The translations under genes were made by a program, and so were the position numbers. Of a stretch of 64,000 nucleotides of DNA, positions 83-31,343 are shown one piece after another. The notes beneath the pieces are model-generated. The model ran no database searches. It was not told where the DNA came from and saw only the letters and a program-made list of their open reading frames with translations. The stretch is taken from contig NZ_AUEG01000002.1 in assembly GCF_000425865.1 (NCBI RefSeq), positions 1 to 64,000 on the forward strand. Reading direction: 5' to 3'. The stretch's first letter is position 1. Every line of letters begins with the position of its first letter. Source of the stretch: Lacticigenium naphthae DSM 19658 (lineage in GTDB: Bacteria; Bacillota; Bacilli; Lactobacillales; Carnobacteriaceae_A).

Positions 83-276
83 ATTATTCCTCGCTTTCTT
101 TTGTATTGAAAGACCATCACTGCTTCATTTCGTGTCTTATTTCCTGTACTCGGACTCATGGTCCCACATACTTAAACCTGATTTAGAAATGACAGTGAGG
201 GAGCTCAGTTTTTGTTTCGGACTCATAGTCCCTGAGGCTTCAGTCGAGCTTCCTTTCACCCTTACTATACCTCTAT
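83..276 (-). ncRNA. Candidate IS110 bridge RNA / non-coding left end
   Basis: This 190-base stretch lies between the transposase start and the lysS terminator and has no convincing gene. On the minus strand it contains two nearly identical hairpins, GGGACTATGAGTCCGA (232-217) and GGGACCATGAGTCCGA (165-150). Each has a GGAC/GTCC stem with a five-base loop, and they lie 67 bases apart. IS110-group elements are known to encode their guide RNA in the non-coding end upstream of the transposase. Position, size and paired stem-loops fit that, but the element boundary and the RNA ends are inferred. Confidence 0.4.
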
Positions 277-323
277 AAAAGAAAAATAGTAGGTAAAAAC
301 CACCGTCGTGGTCTTTACCTACT
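277..323 (-). terminator. Intrinsic terminator of lysS
   Basis: Minus-strand hairpin with 16-base arms (AGTAGGTAAAGACCAC and its partner at 303-288), one G-U pair and a GACG loop. It is followed by ATTTTTCTTTT. It lies about 140 bases after the lysS stop. The IS110 element appears to sit just beyond it. Confidence 0.75.
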
Positions 324-464
324 AATCTTAGTATGTTTTCTTTTCGTATTTCAATGAAAGTATCGTGCATCCTTTTTCAAGACAAATTTCCTTGTGGATA
401 TATACAGTCTTTTCATTATCTGATTCATGGATTATAACAAGTCACACAATCAATGCTCTATTTC

Positions 465-31315: not shown

Positions 31316-31343
31316 AGAGGCTGGGACTTTTGTCCCAGCCTCT
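31316..31343. terminator. Perfect bidirectional terminator-like hairpin
   Basis: AGAGGCTGGGAC, TTTT loop, GTCCCAGCCTCT: a 12-base perfect stem. It lies between the converging SEC-C and MFS genes. Confidence 0.65.

What the first reader, a model, noticed from the sequence alone, without database searches (positions are those of the whole stretch)
83..276. Candidate IS110 bridge RNA with paired GGAC/GTCC hairpins
Directly upstream of the transposase start there is a non-coding stretch with two near-identical hairpins (232-217 and 165-150) 67 bases apart, differing at one base. IS110 elements carry a bridge RNA in this position whose two loops choose donor and target DNA. The element sits just after the lysS terminator hairpin, which may be its target.
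Basis: partly seen in the sequence, partly recalled or inferred. Interest (0 to 1): 0.65.

Follow-up and report, generated by a model that had tools for sequence, protein, structure and literature searches.

The report
IS110 bridge RNA with reversed guides
The DNA at the start of this window is the left end of a jumping gene whose guide RNA steers it into the stop signals behind bacterial genes; the two halves of each guide sit in the opposite order to the best-studied relative, IS621.

Summary
Window 83-336 (- strand) is the left end (LE) of an IS110-family element whose transposase starts at 82. The draft contig ends inside it, and other contigs of the genome carry identical copies. The two near-identical hairpins are the apical stem-loops of a target-binding and a donor-binding loop. 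In 24 aligned left ends, 30 of 43 pairs show compensatory change.

The guides were tested against insertion sites. In 18 elements the target loop's 5' arm complements the right flank; in 22, its 3' arm equals the left flank (0 of 5000 shuffles each). A held-out Lactiplantibacillus element scores 8/8 on both arms. The donor loop matches the element tips and covaries with them.

Two corrections. The "lysS terminator" hairpin (324-287) belongs to the element; it is the RNA's 5' stem-loop. The target is a dispersed terminator palindrome, GAGGCTGGGACNNNNGTCCCAGCCTC, next to the right end. Also, the arm order is the reverse of IS621 and ISEc21. It is the order reported for IS1111 elements, but here the RNA lies upstream of the transposase. 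It is a new variant of a known kind. Transcription and activity were not tested.

The parts
337..345 (-). Left target side: core AA (337-338) and A-rich left flank behind lysS
   Evidence: Identity between own copies stops at about 338-339 while flanks differ
322..336 (-). LE tip ACATACTAAGATTAG (right-donor side), holding -10-like TAAGAT at 330-325
   Evidence: AACATACTAAGATTAG found in 73 of 395 Lactobacillales genomes; RE TTGACT plus LE TAAGAT with a 17-bp spacer at the modelled circle junction
287..324 (-).
   Evidence: Terminator-like, 17 pairs; present in all copies; 11 of 14 pairs with compensatory change
277..286 (-). T tract after the 5' stem-loop
195..259 (-). Target-binding loop with outer stem 259-246 / 206-195
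232..245 (-). Target loop 5' arm; AGCCTC (239-234) complements right target GAGGCT
   Evidence: all seven own right ends are followed by GAGGCT
219..231 (-).
207..218 (-). Target loop 3' arm, GAAACAAAAACT; matches the A-rich left flank in the same sense
   Evidence: the match is weak for this particular element
121..194 (-). Donor-binding loop with outer stem 194-186 / 131-121
166..172 (-). Donor loop 5' arm AGTATGT, complement of LE tip ACATACT
   Evidence: covaries in L247
152..164 (-).
139..147 (-). Donor loop 3' arm ACAGGAAAT, same sense as RE tip GTAGGAA
1..82 (-). Start of the IS110 transposase, cut off by the contig end
   Evidence: C-terminal part found at other contig ends
31317..31342 (.). 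Unoccupied copy of the target palindrome GAGGCTGGGACTTTTGTCCCAGCCTC

Best explanation
Window 83-336 (- strand) is the left non-coding end of an IS110-family insertion sequence and encodes its bridge RNA. Proposed cycle: the element excises as a circle. The RE-LE junction then joins TTGACT in RE to TAAGAT in LE with a 17-bp spacer and drives an RNA made of a 5' stem-loop, a target-binding loop and a donor-binding loop. In the target loop the 5' arm pairs with the top strand right of the insertion point, and the 3' arm pairs with the bottom strand on the left. The donor loop does the same with the LE and RE tips. The DEDD/serine recombinase then joins element and target at an AA core, at the foot of a terminator palindrome behind a gene. 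The element's own hairpin plus T tract faces the interrupted gene and may replace the displaced terminator. Shown by sequence: family, ends, RNA fold, all four guide matches, target palindrome. Inferred: circle, transcription, core, recombination and the terminator role.
For: IS110 Pfam domains PF01548 and PF02371 and NCBIfam NF033542 'IS110 family RNA-guided transposase' in full-length relatives; IS621 and ISCro4 are the best PDB hits. Multiple own copies share one left boundary. Structure on 24 left ends: 88.9% of cells paired, 30 of 43 pairs with change on both sides, covariation 0.496 against 0.193 shuffled (0/500), and collapse when slid by one column. 5' arm x right target 6.75 of 8 against 5.59 +- 0.16 shuffled; 3' arm = left target 6.68 against 5.74 +- 0.21; 0 of 5000 each; both IS621-order tests at the null. 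Held-out Lactiplantibacillus element 8/8 on both target arms, with covarying donor arms. IS621 read by the same method gives the opposite order. All seven own right ends are followed by GAGGCT; 16 palindromes in the genome. Empty site with intact terminator in a relative.
Against: No expression or activity data. For the window's own element the left-arm match is mostly A-run and weak. The spacing between the core and GAGGCT varies by 0-3 bases among own copies. The right end belonging to this particular left end could not be linked in the draft assembly. Base pairing alone does not prove which strand is transcribed; G-U cells outnumber A-C cells 67 to 30, which favours the transposase strand, but the target-loop outer stem does not discriminate (12 to 15).
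Confidence: 0.92

Rival explanations
1. The hairpins are only a regulatory leader of the transposase mRNA (attenuator or protector against outside transcription) and guide nothing.
For: The 5' stem-loop with T tract looks like an intrinsic terminator facing incoming transcription.
Against: Arm sequences covary with flanks at unrelated insertion sites, which a leader has no reason to do.
Confidence: 0.04
2. It is a bridge RNA of the ordinary IS621 order, or is transcribed from the opposite strand, so that the reversed order is a misreading.
For: Complementarity holds for both strands, so base pairing alone does not name the transcript; every published IS110-group example read here has the other order (PMC11208160, PMC11187229).
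Against: IS621-order pairings are at the null. The junction promoter points into LE on the transposase strand. G-U exceeds A-C in the stems. IS621 itself reads in the expected order by the same method.
Confidence: 0.08
3. The hairpin at 287-324 is a host terminator that served as the target.
For: It stands behind lysS and looks like a terminator; the elements do favour terminators.
Against: All copies carry it with unrelated flanks, and its stem diverges with the element, not with the host site. lysS terminators of relatives differ from it.
Confidence: 0.03

Closest known systems
ISSep2 (IS110 family, Staphylococcus epidermidis; annotated name in PLSDB)
   Same: Same LE tip AACATACTAAGATTAG, RE tip CTTGACTAATCGTAGGAA, loop layout and transposase clade
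   Different: Diverged transposase (about 31% to the E. faecalis relative) and another target
IS621 / ISCro4 bridge RNA system (PMC11208160, PMC11208158)
   Same: DEDD/serine recombinase; RNA in the long left end with 5' stem-loop, target loop, donor loop; junction promoter
   Different: IS621's 5' arms pair with the bottom strand (left target, left donor); here the 5' arms pair with the top strand (right target, LE tip)
IS1111-group elements and their seekRNA (ISEc11, ISPa11, IS4321; PMC11187229)
   Different: IS1111 RNAs usually lie downstream of the transposase and the elements have long subterminal inverted repeats; here the RNA is upstream and no long repeat was evident by eye

Membership tests
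IS110 family (broad) | DEDD (PF01548) and Transposase_20 (PF02371) domains | tested here: met
   Full-length relatives over both cut-offs; the window holds only the N-terminal 27 codons, and the C-terminus lies on other contigs
IS110 family (broad) | Long non-coding end giving a bridge RNA whose loops match target and donor | tested here: met
IS110 group | Non-coding RNA region upstream of the transposase gene | tested here: met
IS110 group | 5' arm of each loop pairs with the bottom strand (IS621, ISEc21) | tested here: not met
   5' arm = left target is at the null (3056 of 5000); 3' arm x right target is at the null (2814 of 5000)
IS1111 group | Top-strand complement 5' of the bottom-strand match | tested here: met
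   definition from PMC11187229
IS1111 group | RNA downstream of the transposase | tested here: not met
   RNA lies upstream
IS1111 group | Subterminal inverted repeats of 7-17 bp | tested here: inconclusive
   LE tip ACATACTAAG and RE tip ACGTAGGAA share only a short TAC by eye; no dedicated search
IS1111 group | Transposase clusters with IS1111 members | tested here: not met
   Tree: a branch with support 95/96 holds IS621 and IS4321/IS5075 together, apart from this lineage; unrooted, few references, one of our rows was a wrong reading frame
Bridge RNA in general | RNA is transcribed and bound by the transposase | not testable with these tools
   needs RNA sequencing and a binding assay

The most novel reading that the evidence does not exclude
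A Bacillota lineage of IS110-family elements (ISSep2-like) carries bridge RNAs of reversed arm polarity in the IS110 position. It is separate from both the IS621 and IS1111 branches and has retargeted itself naturally between intrinsic terminators and the ends of ISL3-family elements. Its 5' stem-loop also serves as a replacement terminator, so that insertion behind a gene is nearly harmless.
Probability: 0.5. Interest if true: 0.65.

Novelty: new variant of a known kind. Interest (0 to 1): 0.5.

Why it matters
Bridge RNAs are being developed for programmable DNA insertion, and the published order of the two guide arms follows the IS110/IS1111 split. This lineage breaks that pairing (upstream RNA, IS1111-type order) and gives many naturally retargeted examples for working out the design rules. 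It also offers a plain reason why such elements can sit behind essential genes: they enter at terminators and bring a terminator-like hairpin of their own.

Tried and rejected
Rfam gave only a chance MIR529 hit. The phage collection held nothing similar. Pfam searches of the own genome found only a decayed copy, because the intact element is collapsed at contig ends. The window's right end could not be linked: the genes beside the own right ends are not the gene that follows lysS in relatives. RNAalifold alone missed the long outer stems, so a named structure was counted instead. Streptococcal apical hairpins are shifted by one column in A1. Right ends of the ISL3-end-targeting lineage were not found. 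The palindromes around the LE tip were suspected to be EFAR repeats of enterococci, but only 2 of 22 genomes of one genus hold such a palindrome and the EFAR paper is not in the library, so this is left open. Row A_L054 in the tree was a wrong reading frame and is ignored.

Full report
What is in the window. The window begins at base 1 of contig C2 of a draft genome. The first 338 bases recur, identical or nearly so, at the ends of other contigs. This is the usual sign of a multi-copy insertion sequence on which the assembly broke. The flanks beyond 338-339 are unrelated to one another, which sets the left boundary there.

The observation. The two 16-mers are 15/16 identical at a spacing of 67. 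No pair of this kind appears in 200 dinucleotide shuffles. They are the apical stem-loops GGACTATGAGTCC and GGACCATGAGTCC. In relatives the two apical loops resemble each other but are often not near-identical, so near-identity is not the point; the fold is.

Family. Only 27 codons lie in the window, so full-length relatives were used. Atopostipes suicloacalis (L017/L048) and other Bacilli carry intact 396-404 aa transposases with PF01548 and PF02371 over cut-off and NCBIfam NF033542. IS621 and ISCro4 are the nearest solved structures. The own genome's right-end contigs hold the matching C-terminus.

Ends. The right tip is CTTGACTAA(A/T)CGTAGG followed by AA. Joined to the left tip it gives TTGACT-17-TAAGAT, a junction promoter of the kind described for IS621 (PMC11208160) and ISEc21 (PMC11187229). 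The 16-mer AACATACTAAGATTAG occurs in 73 of 395 Lactobacillales genomes, with almost none for the reversed control pattern. ISSep2 carries both tips too.

RNA fold. On 24 left ends a model of 5' stem-loop, target loop and donor loop keeps 88.9% of cells paired, against 71.6 +- 0.9% shuffled. Thirty of 43 pairs change on both sides, and pairing falls to 35-44% when the partners are slid by 1-3 columns. The window's own RNA folds at z = -3.84.

Guides. The 5' arm of the target loop complements the right flank (6.75 of 8 against 5.59 +- 0.16, 18 elements). The 3' arm equals the left flank (6.68 of 8 against 5.74 +- 0.21, 22 elements). Each is reached by 0 of 5000 permutations, and the swapped assignments are at the null. 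A Lactiplantibacillus plasmid element not used in that set scores 8/8 on both arms, above every other element's flank (at most 5.5 and 6). Its altered LE tip ACATTCT is matched by AGAATGT in the donor loop. ISSep2, also held out, scores 7 on each arm but does not stand out from other flanks. RE-tip variants GTAGG, GTAAG and GTAGA travel with AGGAA, AAGAA and TGAAA in the donor 3' arm.

Arm order. [quoted passage not shown] In ISEc21 the top match is likewise 3' of the bottom match, whereas IS1111 members have the top match first (PMC11187229). Here the top match is first although the RNA lies upstream of the transposase. IS621 from an E. coli genome, read with the same script, gave the published order. 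G-U cells outnumber A-C cells 67 to 30, in favour of transcription along the transposase strand. A tree places this lineage, with ISSep2 and streptococcal and lactobacillar members, apart from a branch (95/96) that holds both IS621 and IS4321/IS5075. It is unrooted and sparsely sampled.

Target. All seven right ends in this genome are followed, after 0-3 bases, by GAGGCT. The full palindrome GAGGCTGGGACNNNNGTCCCAGCCTC (one copy with A for the first G of GGG) occurs 16 times, six beside a right end, and one unoccupied copy at window 31317-31342. Several right-end copies have the next gene in the opposite orientation, as expected of two-way terminators. In other species the right flank is again often a terminator-like palindrome, for example AAAGCCTCCTAAAAGGAGGCTT. 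In another genome of the same genus as L156 the same locus is empty and shows an uninterrupted terminator. A sister lineage has left flank TGTCAA and a 5' arm matching ATCGTGTTGG, the end of an ISL3-type element. That suggests natural retargeting, though its right ends were not seen, and the name ISL3 rests on recall of its inverted repeat, not on a search.

The hairpin behind lysS belongs to the element. Its stem varies with the element, while lysS in relatives is followed directly by other terminators. Because it has 17 pairs and a T tract and faces lysS transcription, it may act as a substitute terminator; this is inference.

Limits. No RNA, binding or transposition data. The left-arm match of the window's own element is weak, and the right end of this copy is unplaced.

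Noticed in passing
window 31317-31342, and 15 more places in the genome: Dispersed terminator-like palindrome GAGGCTGGGACNNNNGTCCCAGCCTC, often within a longer repeat that contains TTTGGAAAATGATTA or a variant of it.
   Followed up: partly
L115-L120: Solitary palindromes of about 42-64 bp made of the LE tip, a hairpin core and the inverted tip, in several Lactobacillales genomes; origin unknown.
   Followed up: partly
L016, L023, L029, L053, L056, L126, L167, L047: A sister lineage sits behind TGTCAA ends of ISL3-type elements, with matching guide arms.
   Followed up: partly
L235, L236 (own genome C2:212253, C3:52646): Right-end remnants without a transposase in front of the target palindrome.
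   Followed up: no
L014, L073 (G025): A left-end remnant without transposase, and a minimal LE+RE derivative at a palindrome half-site.
   Followed up: no
L009 (own genome C14): A decayed second IS110 copy with a diverged left end.
   Followed up: no
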